Assembly: GCA_022510425.1 (NCBI GenBank)
Contig: JAFLTO010000004.1
Location: 62,001 to 126,000, forward strand
Direction: 5' to 3'
Length of the DNA stretch: 64,000 nt
DNA from: Muribaculaceae bacterium
Lineage (GTDB): Bacteria > Bacteroidota > Bacteroidia > Bacteroidales > Muribaculaceae
The number at the start of each line of letters is the position of its first letter. Within the stretch, counting starts at the first letter, position 1. Below the pieces are notes generated by a model. The model did not search any database. It was not told where the DNA came from and saw nothing but the letters and a program-made list of their open reading frames with translations. The translations under genes and the position numbers were made by a program. Below, piece by piece: positions 52,094-63,365 of this stretch.

Positions 52094-52174
52094 TGCCCAG
52101 GTGGCGGAATGGTAGACGCGCTCGTTTCAGGTGCGAGTGCTGCGAGGCGTGCAGGTTCGAGTCCTGTTCTGGGC
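52094..52174 (+). tRNA. tRNA-Leu (anticodon CAG)
   Basis: The acceptor arms GCCCAGG and TCTGGGC pair over seven positions (one G-U). The anticodon stem CTCGT/GCGAG holds the loop TTCAGGT, giving anticodon CAG. A long variable arm (TGCTGCGAGGCGTG) is diagnostic of class II tRNA-Leu, and the T-arm CAGGTTCGAGTCCTG is intact. The encoded 3' end is ACC without the final A. It lies at the edge of the accessory island, a frequent integration target. Confidence 0.95.
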
Positions 52175-52181
52175 ACCTTGA

Positions 52182-52423: not shown

Positions 52424-54121
52424 ATGGTGATGACAAATAATCAAATACTTATAAGGGAAATAATCTCGCAGGAATATAATAATAATCAGCAATTTAGCTC
52501 TCAAGACACTTTCTATGAATTTTTTTCAGCTTCTTTAGTATTAAAAGATTATGATTTCAGTTCTGAAGAAATTGAGAATGGATTAATTGGTGGGCCTAAT
52601 GACGGGGGTTGTGATGCTGCATATGTTATCCTAAATAATGAAATCATTACTCCAGATCAAGTTAATACTTTAGACTGTGTAAAAGGATCAACTTTAGAAT
52701 TTGTTATCATTCAATCCAAAAATGTTACTGGATTTGGCGAAGATGCAATAATGAAGTGGAAGACAATCTCTGAGAATCTTTTTGATATGTCTAATGATGT
52801 AACCCTGTTTAAAGATCGTTATTGTGAAGGGGTAAGGGATGCTTTTATGCTATTCAGGGATGTTATAACCAAATTGATAACTAAACAGTTAAAAATTTAT
52901 ATCAAATATTATTATGTGACAGTTGCGGTAGATTTGCACCAAAATACTATAGCTCAAGGTGAGGAACTAAAAAAAATTGTAGCTAAAAATTATCCTAGCG
53001 CAAATATATCCGTTAATTTTATTGGAGCCGATAAACTAATGGATTTATATAATACAGAAGCGGATGTTAATATAAACGTCAAGCTGGCTGATCAGGCAAT
53101 TTCACTTGGGAAAGAGAATGAATATGTTACACTGATAAACCTATCAGAATATTACAATTTTATAACTGACGCTGAAGGTAATCTCTTGAAGGGAATTTTT
53201 GAATCGAATGTTAGGGACTATCAAGGTAATAATTCTGTAAATTCTTGTATTGCAGAAACACTTCGTAGTAGTAAATTAGAGGACTTTTGGTGGTTAAATA
53301 ACGGCATTACCATTTTATCAGATCGAATTATTCCTATTACTAATAGGCAATTGTCTATCTTAAATCCTGAAGTTGTAAATGGACTACAAACTTCAACTGA
53401 AATTTTTAATTTCTTTTCTGAAAATAAAGATAGCCTTAAGAATGAAGAGCGTTGCGTTTTGGTACGATTTATTGTTCCTCCATCTGAAAAAGTACGCGAT
53501 AATATAATCTTTGCAACAAACAATCAAACTAATATTCCTAAATCCTCATTGCGTGTAACTGATTCAATACATCTTCAAATAGAAATGTATTGTAAGTCGA
53601 GAGGATTGTATTACGATAGAAGAAAAAATTATTATAAGAATCAAAAAAAGAAAGCTAATGATATTATAAGTGTATCTTTTCTGGCTCAATGTCTAATAAC
53701 ATTATTACTGAGAAAACCCGATTTTGCTCGTGCTAGGCCTTCTACTTTATTAACTGATGATAAGATTTACCATACATTATATTCTGATAAAAATAATTTA
53801 TCGACATATTACATTATTGGAAAACTAGGAAAAATAATTCAAGATAATATTCGAAAAACCCCAGATTGGTCATCTTCTGAAAAAAATGACATTTTATTTT
53901 ATGTACTATATTGTGTTGCGGTTACATTATTAGGAAAAACCACTATAAAAAGTTCTGATATTATTGATTTTGATCTCTCTCAGGTTCAAGATGAATTAAT
54001 TAATTCTATTAAATATAAAATTTATGAAAAATACAAAGAATTAGGAGGAAATGGGAGTGTAGCAAAAAATTCACAATTTATTGAAAGGATTGATGAATTA
54101 ATGGAATTTACGGGGAAGTAG
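52424..54121 (+). CDS. AIPR family abortive infection/phage resistance protein
   Basis: The 565-residue protein carries the AIPR hallmarks at about 263-330: RDYQGNNSVN, then FWWLNNGITIL and NPEVVNGLQTS, followed later by ATNNQTNIPKSSL. AIPR proteins sit beside restriction or methylation genes and were named for a phage-resistance phenotype; their activity is not settled. An N-terminal EFVIIQSKN segment resembles the end of a restriction-type nuclease core but lacks a convincing full motif. The gene is visibly AT-rich. It is convergent with the SLOG-methyltransferase-helicase operon across a 111-base AT-rich gap. ATG codons at 52424 and 52430 are both possible starts. Confidence 0.8.
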   Translation: MVMTNNQILIREIISQEYNNNQQFSSQDTFYEFFSASLVLKDYDFSSEEIENGLIGGPNDGGCDAAYVILNNEIITPDQVNTLDCVKGSTLEFVIIQSKNVTGFGEDAIMKWKTISENLFDMSNDVTLFKDRYCEGVRDAFMLFRDVITKLITKQLKIYIKYYYVTVAVDLHQNTIAQGEELKKIVAKNYPSANISVNFIGADKLMDLYNTEADVNINVKLADQAISLGKENEYVTLINLSEYYNFITDAEGNLLKGIFESNVRDYQGNNSVNSCIAETLRSSKLEDFWWLNNGITILSDRIIPITNRQLSILNPEVVNGLQTSTEIFNFFSENKDSLKNEERCVLVRFIVPPSEKVRDNIIFATNNQTNIPKSSLRVTDSIHLQIEMYCKSRGLYYDRRKNYYKNQKKKANDIISVSFLAQCLITLLLRKPDFARARPSTLLTDDKIYHTLYSDKNNLSTYYIIGKLGKIIQDNIRKTPDWSSSEKNDILFYVLYCVAVTLLGKTTIKSSDIIDFDLSQVQDELINSIKYKIYEKYKELGGNGSVAKNSQFIERIDELMEFTGK

Positions 54122-54232: not shown

Positions 54233-54691
54233 CTATAATAATTGTTTTGATTTAGTACTCGTTATATAGGATGAGAATAAAGAACTACGAGGGTTTAGGG
54301 ATGAGAAGACTATTTCATCGGCAATGGAGGCGAGATGGAGATTTCGCTTTTCTGCGTTAGCTTTACTGGGCATGATTATATTATCATTTTGTAGGGATAT
54401 GAATAAAATTCTTCCGGAATTATAAGCATCAAGGAATTTTTGAGGAGTCTTTTTATAGATGCCTCGGTTAAGGCCAATGATAATTCCACACTTACCTTTC
54501 AATAAATATGGCAAGATTTCCATTTCTAAGGGAGATTGAAAACCGGAACAAACAGCCACATCTTCTCTTTTGGCAATCTCTGTAGCCCAATCAAGAGTAG
54601 GCAGGACACTATTGCTCTTAGTCTTGCTCGAAGCAAAGAAAGCAATCTTATGCCATTTCAGCAGTTCTTGATTTCCCAGATAAGTGATCAT
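54233..54691 (-). CDS. Small DprA/SMF-like SLOG-domain protein
   Basis: The 152-residue protein looks like the Rossmann core of DprA/SLOG proteins without the extra DprA domains: IAFFASSKT (first strand and phosphate-like loop), REDVAVCSGFQSPLEMEIL and KCGIIIGLNRGIY, then the late ASIADEIVFSS. SLOG proteins bind nucleotide-type ligands, and some work as sensors or nucleosidases in phage defence; DprA itself loads RecA on single-stranded DNA. The start is the ATG at 54691, which overlaps the methyltransferase stop as TGATG. This coupling argues that it is part of the same system. Confidence 0.7.
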   Translation of the reverse strand: MITYLGNQELLKWHKIAFFASSKTKSNSVLPTLDWATEIAKREDVAVCSGFQSPLEMEILPYLLKGKCGIIIGLNRGIYKKTPQKFLDAYNSGRILFISLQNDNIIMPSKANAEKRNLHLASIADEIVFSSLNPRSSLFSSYITSTKSKQLL

Positions 54692-57600
54692 CAATCCTCT
54701 GAATTTAGCTCATCGCCCATGCGATATTTGATATCATAATTTATAATGAAATCCAGTTCAGGCTCTGTAAAATTATATAAGCTGGCGAGCCTCCTGTCTA
54801 TTTCATCCAGAATAGATTTAGATAGTTTAGGATAATATTCCCAATATATTACATTTCTTCCTGTACTTTGATAATAAGTGTCTTTCTTATTACTTTTTGA
54901 TTCGTATTCTTTGAAAAGTTCCTTACCAATATTTGTAAGAACAATATCGGAACCTATTTCCTTAGGACAAGGAAAATTGTCAATAACTGTTTTTGTTAAA
55001 TTCCTACAATCGGTGTAAGCAATATAACTCCAATAGAAAAATGAAGAAGATAGGAGAGCTCCTATGGAATTATTTGAATAGTTTAAAGAAATTGATATAG
55101 CTTTTTCTGCCTTTACTTCTTCTAAAACTCCGTTTATGTATGTTTCACTTTTAATTGTTTTAATTAGAAGAAAGTATCCTCCCCCAGCAGCACGGTAATA
55201 TATGTTATTAGAATTACTTGTATTACTATAAAATTCTGCAGTACAAGCTTTTGAACACATCCTATTTCTATTTATGTCACACTCTATAGCATATGAAAAT
55301 TTTGGAATTACGTAGGAGTCAACAAATTCGGAGACGTTTACAAACTTTATTATGGTAAAAAGAATTGGTCTGTTTTGAGTGTACCATCTATTATATTTTG
55401 TAGAATAAATAGTTGGTGTACTAATACCACTAGAACGGCATGAAATAAAAATTGTAGCACGCAAATGTTGAAGCATTTCAAATAATTTACCGGGTCTATC
55501 ATCAAAATTCGCATATACTAATAAGTCCGAATTTTCTTTCATTATATCAATAACCGTAGACATTCTTTTAGAACAAGTTATTGCGACTGGAATAATAAAA
55601 GAAAATTTACCATTTTTGTTTCCTATTTGATATCCTCTTTCAATACAACAACCATAAAGATTACCACAATTTGCAGACTTAAGATTATTAAAAGAATAAT
55701 TTACATAGTTACTTGGGAACTCAATATACGGAGGATTTCCTATGATTACATCAAAGCCTCCGTTACCTTGCATTATTTGATAGAATTCGGCTAACCAATT
55801 GAAAGGTTGATGAGATGATAGCCATGCTTCATATGGAAGAGGTGAACCACTCGCTAAATATAGTCTATGATTGAGACTGTCATTTAATTCTGAAAGACGA
55901 GATTTTAATTCGTATTTAGAATGTTTGAATGCCTCAATATTATCATCTTCTTCCATTTGTATTTTCTTGAACAAACGGTCAGCAGCTGCAACCTTAATTA
56001 GCTCCTCATCAATTTTTTCTTTAAATTCCTGATTAGCCAATTCTTCCATGATATCTTTGGCAACTGCCAAATCATTATCCAATTGCTTTTGATTGGCATA
56101 ACCTACCAAAGTATTACCACACCGGATATTGAAATCTATATCAGGAAGGGGGTCAAGCCCGAGGTTATCAGCTTTACGGTCAACATCAACCACTGCCACC
56201 ATCTTTAAGAAAAGTCGAAGTTTAGCTATTTCAGTAGCCTCAACCATAATATCAACTCCGTAAAGATTCCGAAGAATTATGGATTTGAAAATGAAATATT
56301 GGATGTTCGAGCGATATTTACCGTTTATTTCCTCAAGTTCTTTTTTGAAAAGATTTTGATTCTCCTTATGGAATTCTTGCATTCTGAAAATACAAGCCTC
56401 ATAAAGAGGTTCAAGGATATTCATCGCTGCAAAGAGGAATGCTCCCGAACCACAAGTCGGATCGAGAATACTTACACCCTGCAATGCTTCATAAAAATGC
56501 TTGATAAATTTTGAATCGCCGGTATTTAAAAGATCTAGGGCAAAATTTCTGATATCAAGATTATAAGTTATGAAATCATTAATTGAAGTTATCTCTCCAT
56601 TTCTAATCTTGTTAATAATATCATCACATCTTTGCAACCTTTCAATTGTTTCTCTCCAAATTTCAGTTGGCAAAGCCCAAGGTTCGGGAGTGGATTTATT
56701 CCAATCTTTACGAAGTTCAGATAAAGGAATATGATTTTCAGGCAATTCCCCGATTGGTGTTTCCGAATATTCCTTTCTCATTTCCGAAGTTATTATACCC
56801 CTTTTTATTTCTTCAGGAATATTATTAAATTGCTGATATCCTTTCTTTACAGCATCAAATATGTATTTATCTCCACTGTTTTTAAGAGTCAGCCAAACAA
56901 ATCCATCCGGTTCAAAATCTTTGTAAGAATCTTGGGTGCTATCTTTCACCTTGTCAAATAGGAATGGAAGGATACAGTTACGACTTATATATTCCGTGAT
57001 ATCCTCTTTCGTGTAATAGGCACCCATACTTGCCCGGTCGTTGATGTATTGTTCGAAGATATAACCCAAAACATCCGGATTGATATCCTTGCCCGATGCA
57101 GTAATTCTTGTATCAAGATGCCATCGCCAAGTATCGAAGAAATCAAATAACCTGATAAAAGCTTCGTCGGGAATATTGATCTCAGGATATTCTTTTTCAA
57201 TCTGATGTTCTTCAAACATTCCACCATTCAGATAAGGAATTCTTCCGAAAGTATTTATAAAATTCTGATCCCTTTGTGGTGAATTTAATCCGTCATGGAA
57301 GAGTCTTCTTAGGAAACTTTTATAGAAATTATAAAATTTATTATTCCCTTCATTTTCCCTGACCCAATTAAGTTTATTCCGAAGATAGGAAGTGTCAAAA
57401 GCCAAAAATCCTTTTTTCTGAATAAAATAACAGAACATCATCCGGTTGAGCATAACGGATGTGTACCATTGCTTGTTCTTGTTGTCTTTGGTAAGGATAT
57501 GGTCGTCAATGCCGGTAATGAAATCTGCAAAAGCCTTATGTTCTTTCTTGAATCCTGCGTAAAAGTCTTTGGTTATCTTTTCTGAATTTACAGCGAAAGC

Positions 57601-58059
57601 CCCTTGCACTTGTGAGCGTAGGTCAACTATATTTGTTTCTTCATCGAAATCAAATGCAAATCCCTCTAACTTTGAAAAAAGAAAATCAACTTTCCCTTCC
57701 TCATAATCAACCAATACCAATTCTCGTTTTTCATTGGTTCTAACCGGCACAACCCACAAATCTTTGGAACTTCCTTTTTCGGAGAAGATACAGATGTAAT
57801 CGGCAGCCTGATTTCGCAGTTTTGAGTCAATCTTTTTAGCCAGACTTTGAGTCGGCAATTCATTCACCTCACAAGTAAGAATCTGGAAACCGCTTCTTTC
57901 AGCTATCGCTTCTATGTTGTATTCCTGGTCGTCAACAATTATAGCAGGAAGATTAGAATGTCCTTTATACCGATTCCATCCTAATTCCGATATGAATAAA
58001 TCACGGAATTCTCTATTCTTTATTAGCCTTTGAAAATCAGTTTTCTTTATTTGAGCCAT
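54691..58059 (-). CDS. Eco57I-like class I SAM-dependent DNA methyltransferase
   Basis: The 1122-residue protein has a unique N-terminal region (1-330), GAYYTKED (about 346-353), the SAM-binding motif DPTCGSGA (533-540) and the adenine/cytosine amino-methylase motif NPPY (775-778). That is the Eco57I/type IIG order. I see no convincing PD-(D/E)xK nuclease motif in the N-terminus. The C-terminal third, the likely target recognition region, is clearly richer in A+T and Asn/Ser/Tyr than the rest. It follows the helicase by 25 bases and is coupled to the SLOG gene. It probably marks self DNA. Confidence 0.87.
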   Translation of the reverse strand: MAQIKKTDFQRLIKNREFRDLFISELGWNRYKGHSNLPAIIVDDQEYNIEAIAERSGFQILTCEVNELPTQSLAKKIDSKLRNQAADYICIFSEKGSSKDLWVVPVRTNEKRELVLVDYEEGKVDFLFSKLEGFAFDFDEETNIVDLRSQVQGAFAVNSEKITKDFYAGFKKEHKAFADFITGIDDHILTKDNKNKQWYTSVMLNRMMFCYFIQKKGFLAFDTSYLRNKLNWVRENEGNNKFYNFYKSFLRRLFHDGLNSPQRDQNFINTFGRIPYLNGGMFEEHQIEKEYPEINIPDEAFIRLFDFFDTWRWHLDTRITASGKDINPDVLGYIFEQYINDRASMGAYYTKEDITEYISRNCILPFLFDKVKDSTQDSYKDFEPDGFVWLTLKNSGDKYIFDAVKKGYQQFNNIPEEIKRGIITSEMRKEYSETPIGELPENHIPLSELRKDWNKSTPEPWALPTEIWRETIERLQRCDDIINKIRNGEITSINDFITYNLDIRNFALDLLNTGDSKFIKHFYEALQGVSILDPTCGSGAFLFAAMNILEPLYEACIFRMQEFHKENQNLFKKELEEINGKYRSNIQYFIFKSIILRNLYGVDIMVEATEIAKLRLFLKMVAVVDVDRKADNLGLDPLPDIDFNIRCGNTLVGYANQKQLDNDLAVAKDIMEELANQEFKEKIDEELIKVAAADRLFKKIQMEEDDNIEAFKHSKYELKSRLSELNDSLNHRLYLASGSPLPYEAWLSSHQPFNWLAEFYQIMQGNGGFDVIIGNPPYIEFPSNYVNYSFNNLKSANCGNLYGCCIERGYQIGNKNGKFSFIIPVAITCSKRMSTVIDIMKENSDLLVYANFDDRPGKLFEMLQHLRATIFISCRSSGISTPTIYSTKYNRWYTQNRPILFTIIKFVNVSEFVDSYVIPKFSYAIECDINRNRMCSKACTAEFYSNTSNSNNIYYRAAGGGYFLLIKTIKSETYINGVLEEVKAEKAISISLNYSNNSIGALLSSSFFYWSYIAYTDCRNLTKTVIDNFPCPKEIGSDIVLTNIGKELFKEYESKSNKKDTYYQSTGRNVIYWEYYPKLSKSILDEIDRRLASLYNFTEPELDFIINYDIKYRMGDELNSED

Positions 58060-58084
58060 GGTTGTTGAATTTAAGGAGAAAAGT

Positions 58085-61000
58085 TTAAGGATTATACCGA
58101 AGACCCATTGAACATACTATAACAGGTTCTTTATTTGAATTTTCCTCTACAGGAAGTCGGCATAAAGCTCCGTTCTTGCGGAGATCAAGGACATACTGCA
58201 CAATCTCGTCATTGTTCTGATTTCTTCTTAACATCTGCCCGATAGAGAGTTTTGCGGTATCAAGCAAAGGATAATTATAGATATCATCAATAGCTAATTT
58301 CAGACTTTCCTTATCTTCATCTGTAAAGAAAAGGTTACTGTCCTGTCGATAATAATGATCAAGCAATTCCACAATCCGGTATCTTGTTGAGAATCTGTTT
58401 CCAAGAATTCCGGCTGTAGTCGGATCGGCCGTCTCAGTCTTTACCTCCTCTATAGCCTGACTTACCAATTCATGATGATTTTCCAATGGTTCTACTGCGG
58501 GTGTATTGGCATTGCAAGCCATTGTTTGCAAAATCTTTTTCTGAGAATGGCTTACAACCGAGCCATCGGGAGCAATCCAAGACAAAACATCAAAATCATT
58601 GTGAGTTCTGGCATATGTTATCACTCCGGAACTTCCTGGATTTTCAGCCGCTTTTGTGGAATATATCATATTCTGCAACTGAGGAATAATCTGTTTAAGT
58701 TTTGGATTGGCATCAGTCGCGTTTTTCCAAATCTGATAAGCTTGAGAAGAAAGGTCAACATCGGTGTCGTCTTCATCGTCAAGTACTCCTGCTTTTTCGT
58801 TAAACATATCCCGGAGATTCTGCTCGTTGCCTTCAAAGAAAATCTCATCCGAACCGATTACATGGGCATTCGCATTGATTCGGTTGTTAAGCCTTTCCCT
58901 TAACTTTATAATCTTCTCCACACCCTCTGCCGGGAAGAATGAATAGCAAAGAATCTGAGATGCTTTCTGTCCGATACGGTCCACACGTCCCGCTCTCTGA
59001 ATAAGACGAATTATGGCCCAAGGCAGGTCAAAATTCAGAATGATATGACTGTCCTGCAGGTTCTGGCCTTCGGAAAGCACATCAGTGGCTATCATTACTC
59101 TATGCTGTTCATCCTTTTCAATATCCTGACGCTCATTACTTTCGGGAGAGAATTTCTCCACCTCGGCAGTTGGATTCTTGCAATCACCGGTCACAACTGC
59201 AACTTTATTCAATCCTCTTTTCTTCAATTGTCTGCCGATATAGTTTGCTGTGTCGGAATATTGTGTAAAAACGACTACTTTCTCATCTCCATGCTGCTGA
59301 GTAAGCATATCATAAAGAAGATTAAGTTTCTGGTCGTTGTGTGGTTCCCATTCTCCACACAGCTTTATCATATCGATAAGGATTTCACAATCCTTCTTCA
59401 GCTGTTGTTTGAGCGTTTTCTTGAAATATTTCGAATCTATGAAGGAGACATTGTTCTTAGTGTGAATCTGATTGTAATATTTCTCTGCCCTCATCATATA
59501 TTCTTCCATATCGGTTGAAATTTTGGGGAGTTCACCATTTTTAAGTGCTTCCTGTGAAAATTCCTCACCAAGTATGTTGGCATTTACATCCTCATCGTCT
59601 ATGAAATCATCCGGCAGTTGGTTTTCATCACCGATAGGCAAACGCAACTTGTTTTCCATAGCATAGATGAAAACGGCATTGCGCAGGATATGTCGGGAGA
59701 GTGTTAGAAGGAATGAAAAACCCGAACTGTCTATTCGTTTGAAAAAAGTTGATTTGCAGAATCCCATCTGTTGGGTACCGGCACGGGATAAATTCTCTAT
59801 TATTTGTTTTTCTAGAGTTGAGGCTTCCTTTGCTTTCTCTTCATTAATGAATTTAGTCAGTCCATAGCGAGGCAGGTTCAACGACTCCATCATGTCAATC
59901 ATAGCATCGGAATAGAGACGTGAGTATTGATCTCCGGGAACTGTTTCAAATTTTATAGCCTTCGGCAATCTTTCAGGAAAATAAGATTTTCTTCCATCAG
60001 GGAATTGCAAGTATTTCCTTCCGTCTGAAGGATCCGTCTTGGCATAATTCTCTTTTATGAAAGTCCTTGTCCTCCTCACAAGGAAAAGTTTCATCAGCTC
60101 GTTCCAATCCTCAATATGACAACTCTTTTCAAAAGCTGATATCGACCGGATGAATGTCTCGCTATGTGTCTGCAAAAATTGTCTTTCTCCACCCAATTCT
60201 CTTATATATTCTTCAGGACGCATCCCCAAATCCTGGTCGTCGGAGATGAAAAGCCTCAATTGGTTGGAAAGATCAGAGAAGTCTTTATTATATGGAGTAG
60301 CTGTCAGTAGCAAAACATTACTGTCCTGGCGGTCAATCAGTGCTTTGATATTCCTGTATCGGCTACCTTTGGCCCCGTTTCTGAGGTTATGACTCTCATC
60401 AATTATTATCAGACGATAGTAGCGGGAATTGTCTATATCAATCGGTTTAGCCATCGACATTATATCAACCTTCAAATCATATTTACGTGCATATTTCTTC
60501 CACATCTCCTGAAGGTTTGCCGGACAGATTATAAGGGTACTGCTAGCGTATGTAGTTTCATAAATCTTGGCGATGGCACATGCTGTGATGGTTTTTCCCA
60601 AACCAACCACATCCCCGATCATTGCACCGCCTCTTTTGTCATTTCTGAGATGTCTTGCCGCTATCTTTACTGCCGTCTGTTGGAAATCGAATAACTCCCT
60701 TCTAAATTCCGGTGACAAAGCGAATTCCTTTATTCCGTTCCGTGCCTCCTCGCTAAGATGATATGCCGTTTTAAGATAAATGTAATATGGAGGGATTATC
60801 CTTTCTGCAGCCCAAGAATTATCTATCACCTCTATCAGTTCTTTGGTGATATCAATACAGAACTTATCGTCCCATCGGTCGTTAAACCAGTTTGAGAGTT
60901 TTCTTGACTGGTCGCTGTCGGCAAATTCAGCATTTAATTCCCCGTTGCCTCTTAATCCCGACCAAGTGAGATTGCTGCTTCCCATAAGTGCCATGATAGG

Positions 61001-61492
61001 ATTGAAATTATCCTCCGGTCTATGGGCTAAATATAATTTTGCATGAAGGGGCTCTCTTAGATAGAGTTTGACAGTTACCTTCCCGTCTTTCAATTGTTGC
61101 GACAGGCGTCTTAAGGTAATTTCGTCTCTCTTGTCAGGAAGTCCGATTTGAAGTTGCCTACGAAATTCTTTGGCTATTTTGACTTTCTGGGTGCGGATAT
61201 ATTCAGCATCGGGAATGAATTTCTCTTTCCCATAGAGCCATCGGGTTAATTCTTCAGGAGGCTGATGCATCCCGATTAACAACCGGCATATTCTATGAAT
61301 CGGGTCTCTTAAAGATTCCTCTTCTATAAATTCTCCGGGAAGGGTGTCTATTTGGTCTATTATTAGGTCCCAGCCCCTAAGATTGAAATAACCTACACAA
61401 AAATCAACTCGTTTTACTCCCTTGTCAGGTACTATTATATCTTGAAGACCTTGAGTGAACTTTAGGTCGATGTTGTCAAATATTCGAGCCAT
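58085..61492 (-). CDS. PLD-SNF2 fusion: phospholipase D-like nuclease domain plus helicase
   Basis: The 1135-residue protein joins two parts. Residues about 1-210 form a PLD-like domain with one HxK motif (HAKLYLAHRPED, His150/Lys152) and GSSN (171-174), as in PLD-type nucleases that act as dimers. Residues about 265-900 form a SNF2-type ATPase: Walker A GDVVGLGKT (293-301), DESH (365-368), TAT (397-399) and QRAGRVDRIGQ (832-842). A C-terminal region of about 250 residues is unassigned. Together these suggest DNA translocation with cleavage. It heads the helicase-methyltransferase-SLOG operon; its start codon is in a stem-loop. Confidence 0.88.
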   Translation of the reverse strand: MARIFDNIDLKFTQGLQDIIVPDKGVKRVDFCVGYFNLRGWDLIIDQIDTLPGEFIEEESLRDPIHRICRLLIGMHQPPEELTRWLYGKEKFIPDAEYIRTQKVKIAKEFRRQLQIGLPDKRDEITLRRLSQQLKDGKVTVKLYLREPLHAKLYLAHRPEDNFNPIMALMGSSNLTWSGLRGNGELNAEFADSDQSRKLSNWFNDRWDDKFCIDITKELIEVIDNSWAAERIIPPYYIYLKTAYHLSEEARNGIKEFALSPEFRRELFDFQQTAVKIAARHLRNDKRGGAMIGDVVGLGKTITACAIAKIYETTYASSTLIICPANLQEMWKKYARKYDLKVDIMSMAKPIDIDNSRYYRLIIIDESHNLRNGAKGSRYRNIKALIDRQDSNVLLLTATPYNKDFSDLSNQLRLFISDDQDLGMRPEEYIRELGGERQFLQTHSETFIRSISAFEKSCHIEDWNELMKLFLVRRTRTFIKENYAKTDPSDGRKYLQFPDGRKSYFPERLPKAIKFETVPGDQYSRLYSDAMIDMMESLNLPRYGLTKFINEEKAKEASTLEKQIIENLSRAGTQQMGFCKSTFFKRIDSSGFSFLLTLSRHILRNAVFIYAMENKLRLPIGDENQLPDDFIDDEDVNANILGEEFSQEALKNGELPKISTDMEEYMMRAEKYYNQIHTKNNVSFIDSKYFKKTLKQQLKKDCEILIDMIKLCGEWEPHNDQKLNLLYDMLTQQHGDEKVVVFTQYSDTANYIGRQLKKRGLNKVAVVTGDCKNPTAEVEKFSPESNERQDIEKDEQHRVMIATDVLSEGQNLQDSHIILNFDLPWAIIRLIQRAGRVDRIGQKASQILCYSFFPAEGVEKIIKLRERLNNRINANAHVIGSDEIFFEGNEQNLRDMFNEKAGVLDDEDDTDVDLSSQAYQIWKNATDANPKLKQIIPQLQNMIYSTKAAENPGSSGVITYARTHNDFDVLSWIAPDGSVVSHSQKKILQTMACNANTPAVEPLENHHELVSQAIEEVKTETADPTTAGILGNRFSTRYRIVELLDHYYRQDSNLFFTDEDKESLKLAIDDIYNYPLLDTAKLSIGQMLRRNQNNDEIVQYVLDLRKNGALCRLPVEENSNKEPVIVCSMGLRYNP

Positions 61493-61870: not shown

Positions 61871-62044
61871 TTAACAATAATTTAAGATTTGGCAATCATG
61901 AGAGTTAGGATTAATGAGGTATATATTAATTCTTAGTCTAATTGTAAGCATATTATTTATACATGAATGTTTGTATTTATTCTTTTTAAAACCAAAGCAT
62001 TGAAAATAAAATTGAGTAATTTTGTAATTATAGTATTGAAATTT

Positions 62045-62908
62045 ATGATTTTTGAAACGATAAAGGAATTTGAAGATTATATTTTCTCCATAGAAACAGA
62101 GGAACAGCTTCAAAATGCAAAATATGGTGAAGCTGATGTTTTGGCTTATTATGAAAGTTTGGGGGATAGGGCACGAGCTCAAATTTATAAAGATTTATCT
62201 ATGAAATCCGGAAAGGAAAGTGTCTTGAACAATAAATATGATTTTCAAGATATGGCTAAAGGGTTCATGGAGAATTTAGATGATTTAGGATCTTTCTTTG
62301 CTTCCATAGGAGAAAAATACATGCCGAAGATTCATCGGAACCAATTGGAAAGATATCCCTTAGTCAGAACCATATTATCCAATTATCAGAATTTGGATGA
62401 TGCTAGTAATGCAGTGCTTTCAATCTTCAATGATATGGGGACACGTATTGAAGCCATGCCAGAAATTCCGGATGAGAAGTTTGAGGATTTGTTCGATGAA
62501 CTAGAAAAGGATCCGCAAACCAAGGAAATAATGCAAAAAATTAACGATGTATTTAATGGATTTGAAATAGATGATGAAAATGAGGAAGAACCAGGATCAG
62601 ATAAAGACATTGAAGAACAAGATCCAATTAAGGACTCAATTGTAAATTCAAAAGGGTTCAAAAAGGCAATCGAGGTAAACTTGATAGAAGAAGCTACCGG
62701 TAATTACAAATGGCTTGGAACTAAAGGAGAATTAGCATTATTTGCTGAGTTATTGAGTGAACAATTAAATATAAAATATAAGTGGCAACCATTTGAAGAA
62801 TTATTTGGATATAAGAATCTGGCTAATGCCAAATGGAAGACAAAAGAAATCAGGGGGTATGCAGGTAGCAGAGAAGCTGAAATACTAAGTATTTTCAATA
62901 AGAAATAA
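62045..62908 (+). CDS. Hypothetical acidic protein on the island
   Basis: The 287-residue protein is strongly acidic in the middle (DDENEEEPGSDKDIEEQD) with helical regions on each side, and a basic, folded-looking end (WLGTKGELALFAELLSEQLN). I do not recognise it. The ATG at 62045 is chosen because it follows a -7-like TAATTTTG at 62017-62024 by about 20 bases; the frame also opens at 61967, but the sequence there is AT-rich and promoter-like. It has its own strong terminator, and lies between the defence operon and the excisionase-type gene. Confidence 0.6.
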   Translation: MIFETIKEFEDYIFSIETEEQLQNAKYGEADVLAYYESLGDRARAQIYKDLSMKSGKESVLNNKYDFQDMAKGFMENLDDLGSFFASIGEKYMPKIHRNQLERYPLVRTILSNYQNLDDASNAVLSIFNDMGTRIEAMPEIPDEKFEDLFDELEKDPQTKEIMQKINDVFNGFEIDDENEEEPGSDKDIEEQDPIKDSIVNSKGFKKAIEVNLIEEATGNYKWLGTKGELALFAELLSEQLNIKYKWQPFEELFGYKNLANAKWKTKEIRGYAGSREAEILSIFNKK

Positions 62909-63089: not shown

Positions 63090-63365
63090 ATGGAAGAAAA
63101 TAAAATTTTGGAAGCATTGGCAGACCGCCTTGCATATTGCACGAAAGAGGTTTTAACGGCAGATGAAGTGAGCCGTTATACCGGAATAAGCAAAAGTTAC
63201 CTTTACAAACTCACGATGAACCGGGAGATTCCCCACTATAAACCTACCGGCAAGCTTGTATTCTTCAATCGACGTGAGGTCGAGCAGTGGCTACAGAACA
63301 ATCGTATAAAGACCGAATCCGAGTTAAATCAGGAAGCTCAGTCATATTGCCGTAAAAACAAGTAA
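63090..63365 (+). CDS. Helix-turn-helix protein, excisionase (AlpA/Xis) type
   Basis: The 91-residue protein has the MerR-like HTH_17 pattern: VLTADEVSRYTGISKSYLYK, then LTMNREIPHYKPTGKLVFFN and REVEQWL. Small proteins of this type control excision of Bacteroides integrative elements or activate neighbouring genes. It is followed 3 bases later by the RepA-like gene, forming a typical element core. Its palindromic upstream site suggests self-control. Confidence 0.88.
   Translation: MEENKILEALADRLAYCTKEVLTADEVSRYTGISKSYLYKLTMNREIPHYKPTGKLVFFNRREVEQWLQNNRIKTESELNQEAQSYCRKNK

What the first reader, a model, noticed from the sequence alone, without database searches (positions are those of the whole stretch)
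54233..61492. Three-gene operon: PLD-SNF2 helicase, Eco57I-like methyltransferase, small SLOG/DprA-like protein
All three genes run in the same direction. The gap between helicase and methyltransferase is 25 bases, and the methyltransferase and SLOG genes share TGATG. The helicase carries a PLD domain (H150, K152, GSSN) that could be the nuclease, while the methyltransferase shows no nuclease motif. DISARM uses separate SNF2, methylase and PLD genes; here PLD and SNF2 are fused and drmA/drmB are absent, and a SLOG protein is added. This may be a reduced or distinct methylation-guided defence system.
Basis: partly seen in the sequence, partly recalled or inferred. Interest (0 to 1): 0.75.

Follow-up and report, generated by a model that had tools for sequence, protein, structure and literature searches.

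The report
Restriction system with antitoxin-like third gene
These three genes look like a bacterial immune system in which a methyltransferase marks the cell's own DNA, a motor-nuclease cuts unmarked DNA, and a small protein related to known antitoxins travels with them, probably to keep the cutter in check.

Summary
The operon is real and recurs. Helicase (58085-61492), methyltransferase (54691-58059) and DprA-like protein (54233-54691) are intact minus-strand frames. In 395 phylum genomes 13 carry the helicase, 18 the small protein, 9 both (Fisher p=5e-11). Of the 80 closest helicase loci fetched, 74 have the methyltransferase next; with a close methyltransferase and 5 kb of room, 33 of 38 carry the small gene. 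It is not DISARM or BR: MZB/DUF1998 and DUF499 are absent from the genome. The PLD active site is invariant in 75 of 75 helicases; the methyltransferase is MmeI-like without a conserved nuclease motif. Best reading: ATP-dependent restriction-modification with Type III-like division of labour and a PLD-SNF2 restriction subunit. The small protein has the DprA fold, nearest the antitoxin ShosA; 37 of 44 relatives match PsyrA. I propose that it restrains the cutter (inferred). Many relatives carry exchangeable toxin or defence genes between methyltransferase and small gene; the window has none. The core is already catalogued in pieces; the third gene and slot were not found in the papers searched.

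The parts
58085..61492 (-). PLD-SNF2 helicase (1135 aa), proposed restriction subunit; first gene of the operon
   Evidence: Pfam PLDc_2 39 bits, SNF2-rel_dom, Helicase_C; partial PADLOC match C3a139 HKD+Snf2 168 bits; 75-sequence conservation
60938..61045 (-). PLD active-site stretch, residues 150-185: H150, K152, GSSN 171-174, E185
   Evidence: invariant in 75 of 75 aligned helicases
58970..60685 (-). SNF2-type motor, residues 270-841 (Walker K300, D365-E366-S367-H368)
   Evidence: Pfam; these residues invariant in 75 of 75
54691..58059 (-). MmeI/Eco57I-like N6-adenine DNA methyltransferase (1122 aa)
   Evidence: Pfam Eco57I 85 bits; PADLOC PDLC03628 848 bits over residues 4-1119
57580..58059 (-). 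methyltransferase residues 1-160, in the place of MmeI's nuclease domain; no conserved catalytic motif
   Evidence: 52-sequence alignment; fold undecided, weak matches only
56443..56463 (-). methyltransferase motif I DPTCGSG (residues 533-539)
   Evidence: conserved in 90-100% of 52 sequences at each position
55726..55737 (-). methyltransferase motif IV NPPY (residues 775-778)
   Evidence: N, P, P invariant and Y in 90% of 52 sequences
54820..55662 (-). variable region, residues 800-1080, proposed target-recognition domain
   Evidence: lowest conservation in the 52-sequence alignment; G+C 30% in residues 780-1122 against 36% in 1-779
54233..54691 (-). DprA-fold (SLOG, PsyrA/ShosA-like) protein, 152 aa; third gene, ATG overlaps the methyltransferase stop (TGATG)
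52163..52179 (+). left attachment repeat of the element that carries the operon (3' end of tRNA-Leu, 52095-52177)
   Evidence: 17-bp exact repeat at 72615-72631 in window coordinates, past the window's end, beside a tyrosine integrase gene

Best explanation
An ATP-dependent restriction-modification system with Type III-like division of labour and a fixed antitoxin-like third gene. (1) The methyltransferase recognises a short site with its variable C-terminal region and puts m6A on it (inferred from its family). (2) The PLD-SNF2 protein is the restriction subunit: activated at unmethylated sites, it moves along DNA by ATP hydrolysis and cuts with a PLD dimer, as SauUSI does (inferred). The methyltransferase's N-terminal region sits where MmeI has its nuclease but keeps no catalytic motif, so cutting is done in trans (supported by conservation). 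(3) The DprA-fold protein is a dedicated partner (supported by conserved linkage) that most likely restrains the cutter on self DNA, as its relative RqlI restrains the toxic helicase RqlH (inferred). My odds for the steps: restriction-modification core 0.85; PLD domain is the cutter 0.8; small protein restrains the helicase-nuclease 0.4.
Against: No activity has been shown for any of the three proteins. The small gene is missing from 5 of 38 loci with a close methyltransferase and 5 of 5 with a distant one, from G090, from 4 of 13 helicase genomes of the phylum sample, and from the 3 plasmid loci fetched, two cyanobacterial and one Pelobacter, so the core must work without it. It also occurs without the pair (6 loci with adequate flank; L030, L032 and L034). 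The distance correlation may partly reflect host ancestry. The 80 loci are the best of 499, biased to close relatives. The window's small protein itself has no PsyrA match and lacks the arginine that 22 of 44 relatives have at position 22. PsyrA, ShosA and RqlI act on RecQ- or PRTase-type toxins, not on PLD-SNF2 proteins.
Confidence: 0.6

Rival explanations
1. The small protein controls the exchangeable toxins that many relatives carry between methyltransferase and small gene, not the helicase: a guard that licenses a backup toxin when restriction is inhibited.
For: Among 44 intervening ORFs scanned: DUF1016/YhcG, RhuM, Schlafen-AlbA, DarT and Macro, Fic, TIR, NYN and others. Outside the pair the small gene stands beside a Schlafen-type gene (L032) or a DUF1016 nuclease (L034). 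PsyrA, ShosA and RqlI are antitoxins (PMC9122126, passage).
Against: In the window and in 9 of 40 loci there is no room for cargo between the two genes, yet the small gene is kept. The cargo is too diverse for one simple antitoxin, and some brings its own likely antitoxin (DarT with Macro).
Confidence: 0.25
2. The small protein is a passenger: a defence-island gene that hitchhikes at a recombination hotspot behind a two-gene restriction-modification system.
For: It also occurs alone, in L143 and L144 away from any helicase or methyltransferase of this kind. Copies of gene ends near the junction show that the place recombines. The G+C of the window operon is mosaic. The pair exists without it.
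Against: 33 of 38 retention and a distance correlation equal to that of the obligate partner; TGATG overlap in the window; order changed but linkage kept in L098; invariant residues in 44 of 44.
Confidence: 0.2
3. The small protein acts as DprA does, on single-stranded DNA: it captures cut or unwound ends and hands them to RecA for repair or degradation.
Against: The residue aligned with the GSR-loop arginine of DprA (alignment by eye, role recalled) is R in only 22 of 44 relatives and S in the window, while a pocket-like set (S21, S53, E56) is invariant; the closest solved match is an antitoxin, not DprA.
Confidence: 0.15
4. The methyltransferase is a complete Type IIG enzyme that cuts by its own N-terminal domain; the helicase is an independent or accessory factor.
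Against: No conserved D/ExK motif in residues 1-160 of 52 sequences, while the PLD site is invariant in 75 of 75 helicases; the two genes are almost always adjacent.
Confidence: 0.1
5. A reduced DISARM, BREX or BREX-related (BR) system.
For: Partial scores to DrmD, DrmMI, PglX and BrxH profiles; BR Type-2 helicases also have HKD fused to Snf2 (PMC12839542, section 30).
Against: MZB (DUF1998) and DUF499 are absent from the genome; the one PglZ-domain gene lies about 22 kb beyond the element; relatives in several phyla have the same two-gene core, so nothing looks lost.
Confidence: 0.03

Closest known systems
Pin17FIII system of Prevotella intermedia 17F (PMC5608340; section 14 part 2 and passages read)
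   Same: Long m6A methyltransferase (3354 bp) with a SNF2/RAD54-family helicase upstream, on a mobile locus; labelled Type IIG; modifies GGYGAB when expressed alone in E. coli.
   Different: Whether its helicase carries a PLD domain, whether a DprA-like gene is present, and sequence identity to ours could not be checked; it has an inverted partial methyltransferase gene beside it, the window has none.
PADLOC REase_MTase_IIG (PDLC03628) and C3a139 HKD+Snf2 profiles
   Same: Methyltransferase 848 bits over its full length; helicase 168 bits.
   Different: Separate single-gene labels; neither describes the pair or the third gene.
Type III restriction-modification (EcoP15I; PMC4490356, abstract and outline)
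   Same: Separate modification subunit with recognition, and helicase-type restriction subunit; methylation of one strand of the site.
   Different: Res has a PD-(D/E)XK nuclease (recalled); here a PLD nuclease at the N-terminus, an MmeI-like methyltransferase and a third gene.
SauUSI (PMC7913695, passages)
   Same: N-terminal PLD nuclease fused to an SF2 helicase-like ATPase; dimer through the nuclease; cuts after translocation.
   Different: Single-chain Type IV enzyme that recognises 5mC with an SRA domain; no methyltransferase partner.
BREX-related Type-2 systems (PMC12839542, sections 29, 30 and 35 part 1)
   Same: HKD nuclease at the N-terminus of a Snf2 helicase beside an N6-methyltransferase; backup effectors in the locus.
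   Different: Built on a DUF499 ATPase, DUF3780 and a DUF1156 methyltransferase; DUF499 is absent here.
DISARM class 1 and ARMADA (PMC12458937, passages)
   Same: SNF2/RapA-type helicase paired with a PglX-like methyltransferase.
   Different: Both include a YprA-family helicase; here PLD is fused to the SNF2 motor and MZB/DUF1998 is absent from the genome.
PsyrTA, ShosTA, RqlHI (PMC9122126 and PMC4670107, passages)
   Same: DprA-fold antitoxin; ShosA is the best solved match of the small protein and 37 of 44 relatives match PsyrA.
   Different: Their partners are PRTase or RecQ-PRTase proteins; here the partners are a PLD-SNF2 helicase and a methyltransferase, and the small protein is the bare DprA-like core.

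Membership tests
DISARM | drmB-type gene (DUF1998/MZB) | tested here: not met
   PF09369 (MZB; that this is the former DUF1998 is recalled) has no match in the whole genome; the control rings in 8 of 14 genomes
DISARM | PLD nuclease encoded by a gene of its own (drmC) | tested here: not met
   PLD domain is the N-terminus of the SNF2 protein here and in the other 74 aligned relatives
BREX-related (BR) Type-2 | DUF499 ATPase | tested here: not met
   PF04465 has no match in the genome; control rings in 1 of 14
BREX-related (BR) Type-2 | HKD nuclease fused to Snf2 helicase | tested here: met
   PLDc_2 plus SNF2-rel_dom
BREX | PglZ beside a PglX methyltransferase | tested here: not met
   only PglZ-domain frame in the genome (541 aa) is at C34:156267, about 22 kb beyond the element; other BREX genes were not searched
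Type IIG/IIL (MmeI, Eco57I) | gamma-class N6-methyltransferase with MmeI-like helical spacer and C-terminal recognition domain | tested here: met
Type IIG/IIL (MmeI, Eco57I) | active nuclease domain in the same chain | tested here: inconclusive
   no D/ExK conserved in residues 1-160 of 52 sequences; fold of this part undecided
Type III restriction-modification | separate modification subunit and helicase-nuclease subunit | tested here: met
   two genes, adjacent in 74 of 80 loci
Type III restriction-modification | PD-(D/E)XK nuclease in the helicase subunit (recalled) | tested here: inconclusive
   Pfam reports PLDc_2 and no PD-(D/E)XK domain in the helicase; its C-terminal part was not folded
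Type III restriction-modification | modification of one strand; cutting needs two sites | not testable with these tools
   needs methylome and cleavage assays
PsyrTA / ShosTA / RqlHI | DprA-fold antitoxin | tested here: met
PsyrTA / ShosTA / RqlHI | PRTase or RecQ-PRTase toxin beside it | tested here: not met
   neighbours are the methyltransferase and an AIPR gene; a RecQ-PRTase plus DprA pair is seen in L151 for comparison

The most novel reading that the evidence does not exclude
A restriction-modification family whose cutter is licensed by a DprA-type antitoxin. The small protein senses a nucleotide or DNA signal with a conserved pocket (S21, S53, E56, R116, N117) and holds the PLD-SNF2 motor silent; infection or loss of methylation releases it. 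Its gene also closes a slot behind the methyltransferase into which toxin cassettes are exchanged as backup weapons, so that one locus joins restriction and abortive infection through one sensor.
Probability: 0.25. Interest if true: 0.8.

Novelty: new variant of a known kind. Interest (0 to 1): 0.6.

Why it matters
The two-gene core is spread over several phyla and is filed today under 'type IIG', which hides both its separate PLD motor-nuclease and its third gene. If the DprA-like protein restrains the cutter, this would be a restriction system with a dedicated antitoxin-type brake, and would join two lines of work: DprA-family antitoxins and ATP-dependent restriction. The exchangeable slot in relatives is a place to look for new abortive-infection genes. 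The window operon has no cargo, so it is a clean minimal version in which to ask whether the small protein acts on the core itself.

Tried and rejected

Limits of the counts. The 600-bit line between close and distant methyltransferases was set after seeing the data. The two phylum searches each report 395 genomes drawn in the same way; I took them as the same set because handles coincide. Of 53 intervening ORFs 47 have 100 aa or more and 44 were scanned; I left out L047:17022-17393, L072:18771-19127 and L090:12625-13011. One of the 44 matches Eco57I and is probably the second half of a methyltransferase split into two frames in L067, not cargo. The family tally shows 25 of 38 families, so I cannot say how many ORFs had no match. 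In L069 the first small-gene call is a weak hit, so its distance is unsure. In the tree, L049 was filed as 'solo' because its helicase frame was not extracted; it is a system locus. The tree itself does not separate system from solo rows (6 changes, shuffled mean 7.6). The Synechocystis methylome paper is not held, so a motif that I recall for that species is not used.
Full report
OBSERVATION. The order of transcription is helicase, methyltransferase, small gene. The next genes on either side, AIPR (52424-54121) and a protein without any family match (61967-62908), are on the other strand, so the operon has three genes.

DO THE GENES BELONG TOGETHER? Order sample, 247 genomes: small protein in 15 at E 0.001 (9 at E 1e-8 or better), methyltransferase in 5 and helicase in 5 at E 1e-60. 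Four of the 5 helicase genomes have all three in one locus (window, G101, G112, G156; in the last three other genes lie between methyltransferase and small gene); the fifth, G090, has a more distant methyltransferase and no small gene. Phylum sample, 395 genomes: helicase in 13 at E 1e-150, small protein in 18 at E 1e-8, both in 9; Fisher p 5.4e-11, or 8.3e-10 without the window's own genome. In 7 of the 9 both are on one contig; in G301 and G406 they are on different contigs. From the small gene's side, 17 loci besides the window's were fetched: 7 have the methyltransferase upstream (L135-L140, L146; in L135 it is short and no helicase was found in that genome), 10 do not, and 4 of these 10 are cut off by a contig end on that side (L141, L142, L145, L148).

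In genome contigs the best 80 of 499 confirmed helicase stretches were kept. The methyltransferase follows in 74 of 80, within 100 nt in 61; five of the other six loci end within 830 bases of the helicase match, and in L098 methyltransferase and small gene lie before the helicase. Where at least 5 kb follow the methyltransferase, 33 of 43 loci carry the small gene: 33 of 38 when the methyltransferase scores 600 bits or more against our set, 0 of 5 when it scores less. Records with all three are labelled mostly Bacteroidota, and also KSB1, Deltaproteobacteria, Desulfatirhabdium, Kiritimatiellae and Clostridiales (titles); most are metagenome bins, so labels are not certain. Pairwise distances of helicase and small protein correlate (r 0.69, 44 loci) as strongly as those of helicase and methyltransferase (r 0.63, 51 loci), with no permutation as high; shared host ancestry may contribute. 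Against universality: the pair stands without the small gene in the three plasmid loci fetched, from Synechocystis 6803 pSYSX, Picosynechococcus and Pelobacter pPRO1.

A CARGO SLOT IN RELATIVES. In 9 of 40 loci, as in the window, small gene and methyltransferase are within 62 nt; in the others the distance runs up to 4.6 kb. The 44 intervening ORFs scanned match DUF1016_N (5), RhuM (4), YhcG_C (4), HATPase_c_4 (3), KAP (2), Schlafen-AlbA (2), and singly DarT, Macro, Fic, FRG, TIR_2, NYN, DUF3644 and others. The order-sample loci have DUF3644 (L026), OLD-TOPRIM plus UvrD (L027) and a ParA-like gene (L028) there. In 5 of 49 loci examined there are extra copies of gene ends: of the methyltransferase 3' end shortly before the small gene in L046 (54 bp, 98%) and L096, before a second small gene in L047 and L065, and of the small gene's 5' end at the methyltransferase stop in L136. 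In G159 a fragment like our methyltransferase's C-terminus stands before a Schlafen-type gene and the small gene, although the main methyltransferase there is of another family and the helicase again has SNF2 and a sub-threshold PLD match. This suggests exchange of cassettes at a once direct junction. The window operon is itself a mosaic in G+C: 41% helicase, 36% methyltransferase residues 1-779, 30% residues 780-1122, 37% small gene.

MOBILE SETTING. A 17-bp exact repeat of the tRNA-Leu 3' end (52163-52179) recurs at 72615-72631 in window coordinates, past the window's end. Beside it is a tyrosine integrase gene; relaxase, NikA-like, DnaG-like and DUF1016 genes lie between. The operon is therefore cargo of a likely integrative mobilizable element of about 20.5 kb; mobility was not tested.

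MECHANISM. Supported here: intact, conserved catalytic sites; conserved linkage; DprA/ShosA-type fold. Known for a look-alike: the Pin17FIII methyltransferase, cloned without its upstream SNF2 helicase, makes m6A at GGYGAB in E. coli (PMC5608340). Such a non-palindromic site is marked on one strand only, which in Type III systems goes with an ATP-dependent partner (general knowledge; EcoP15I abstract). Inferred: the PLD-SNF2 chain cuts unmethylated DNA as a PLD dimer after ATP-driven movement, as SauUSI does (PMC7913695, passages), and the DprA-like protein keeps it off self DNA. That the small gene is kept without cargo speaks for control of the core; its place beside toxin-like genes in other loci speaks for control of cargo. 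This is the main open question.

KNOWN OR NEW. I found no paper describing the PLD-SNF2, MmeI-like methyltransferase and DprA-like trio, or the slot, in the searches; these cover open-licence PubMed Central only, and most hits were seen as listings. Toxins and backup effectors embedded in restriction and BREX loci are a known theme (PMC3710099, passages; PMC12839542, section 35 part 1). I therefore rate it a new variant of a known kind, ATP-dependent restriction-modification, with a bolder reading in the section on the most novel reading.

Noticed in passing
window 52424-54121 (+): AIPR/AbiU-family gene, convergent with the operon (PADLOC AbiU 601 bits, Pfam AIPR 130 bits); no relative in the 112 other loci searched.
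   Followed up: partly
window 52163 to 72631 (past the window's end, L166): Likely integrative mobilizable element of about 20.5 kb at tRNA-Leu with 17-bp end repeats, integrase, relaxase, NikA-like and DnaG-like genes.
   Followed up: partly
L166:7914-9098 (window coordinates 69914-71098): A DUF1016/YhcG nuclease gene in the same element; the same family is the most frequent cargo in the slot of relatives.
   Followed up: no
window 61967-62908 (+): Protein of 313 aa with a very acidic stretch and no match in Pfam, NCBIfam or PADLOC, divergent from the helicase.
   Followed up: no
window 63090-63365 (+): Small HTH_17/excisionase-type protein with a weak match to MADS MAD1, below its cut-off (31.5 against 80 bits).
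   Followed up: no
L166:10780-14858 (window coordinates 72780-76858): MrcB_N gene and DUF2357/PD-(D/E)XK gene just beyond the right end repeat, possibly a second defence system.
   Followed up: no
L172:12790-15411 (pSYSX, Synechocystis 6803): The helicase-methyltransferase pair here has a VapC-family toxin gene between its two genes and lies near E2, ThiF-type E1 and multiubiquitin-domain genes.
   Followed up: no
L151:7540-10494 (G355): RecQ-like helicase with a C-terminal phosphoribosyltransferase domain followed by a full DprA-type gene: a PsyrTA/RqlHI-like pair found through the small protein.
   Followed up: no
L171:3604-7912 and L033 (G159): A sister system: SNF2 helicase with weak PLD match, KilA-N gene, methyltransferase of another family with TaqI_C, RhuM, methyltransferase-tail fragment, Schlafen-type gene, DprA-like gene.
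   Followed up: partly
L029:1155-2975 (G090): Pair without the small gene is followed by AAA_21/AAA_15 ATPase and DUF4276 genes, an arrangement that recalls PARIS (recalled).
   Followed up: no
L143:9717-10385 and L144:9714-10301: The DprA-like gene stands alone, away from any helicase or methyltransferase of this kind, in two genomes of one genus.
   Followed up: no
L114:10013-10051: Exact 39-bp copy of the methyltransferase 3' end about 0.9 kb downstream, at the contig's very end; may be another junction copy or an assembly edge.
   Followed up: no
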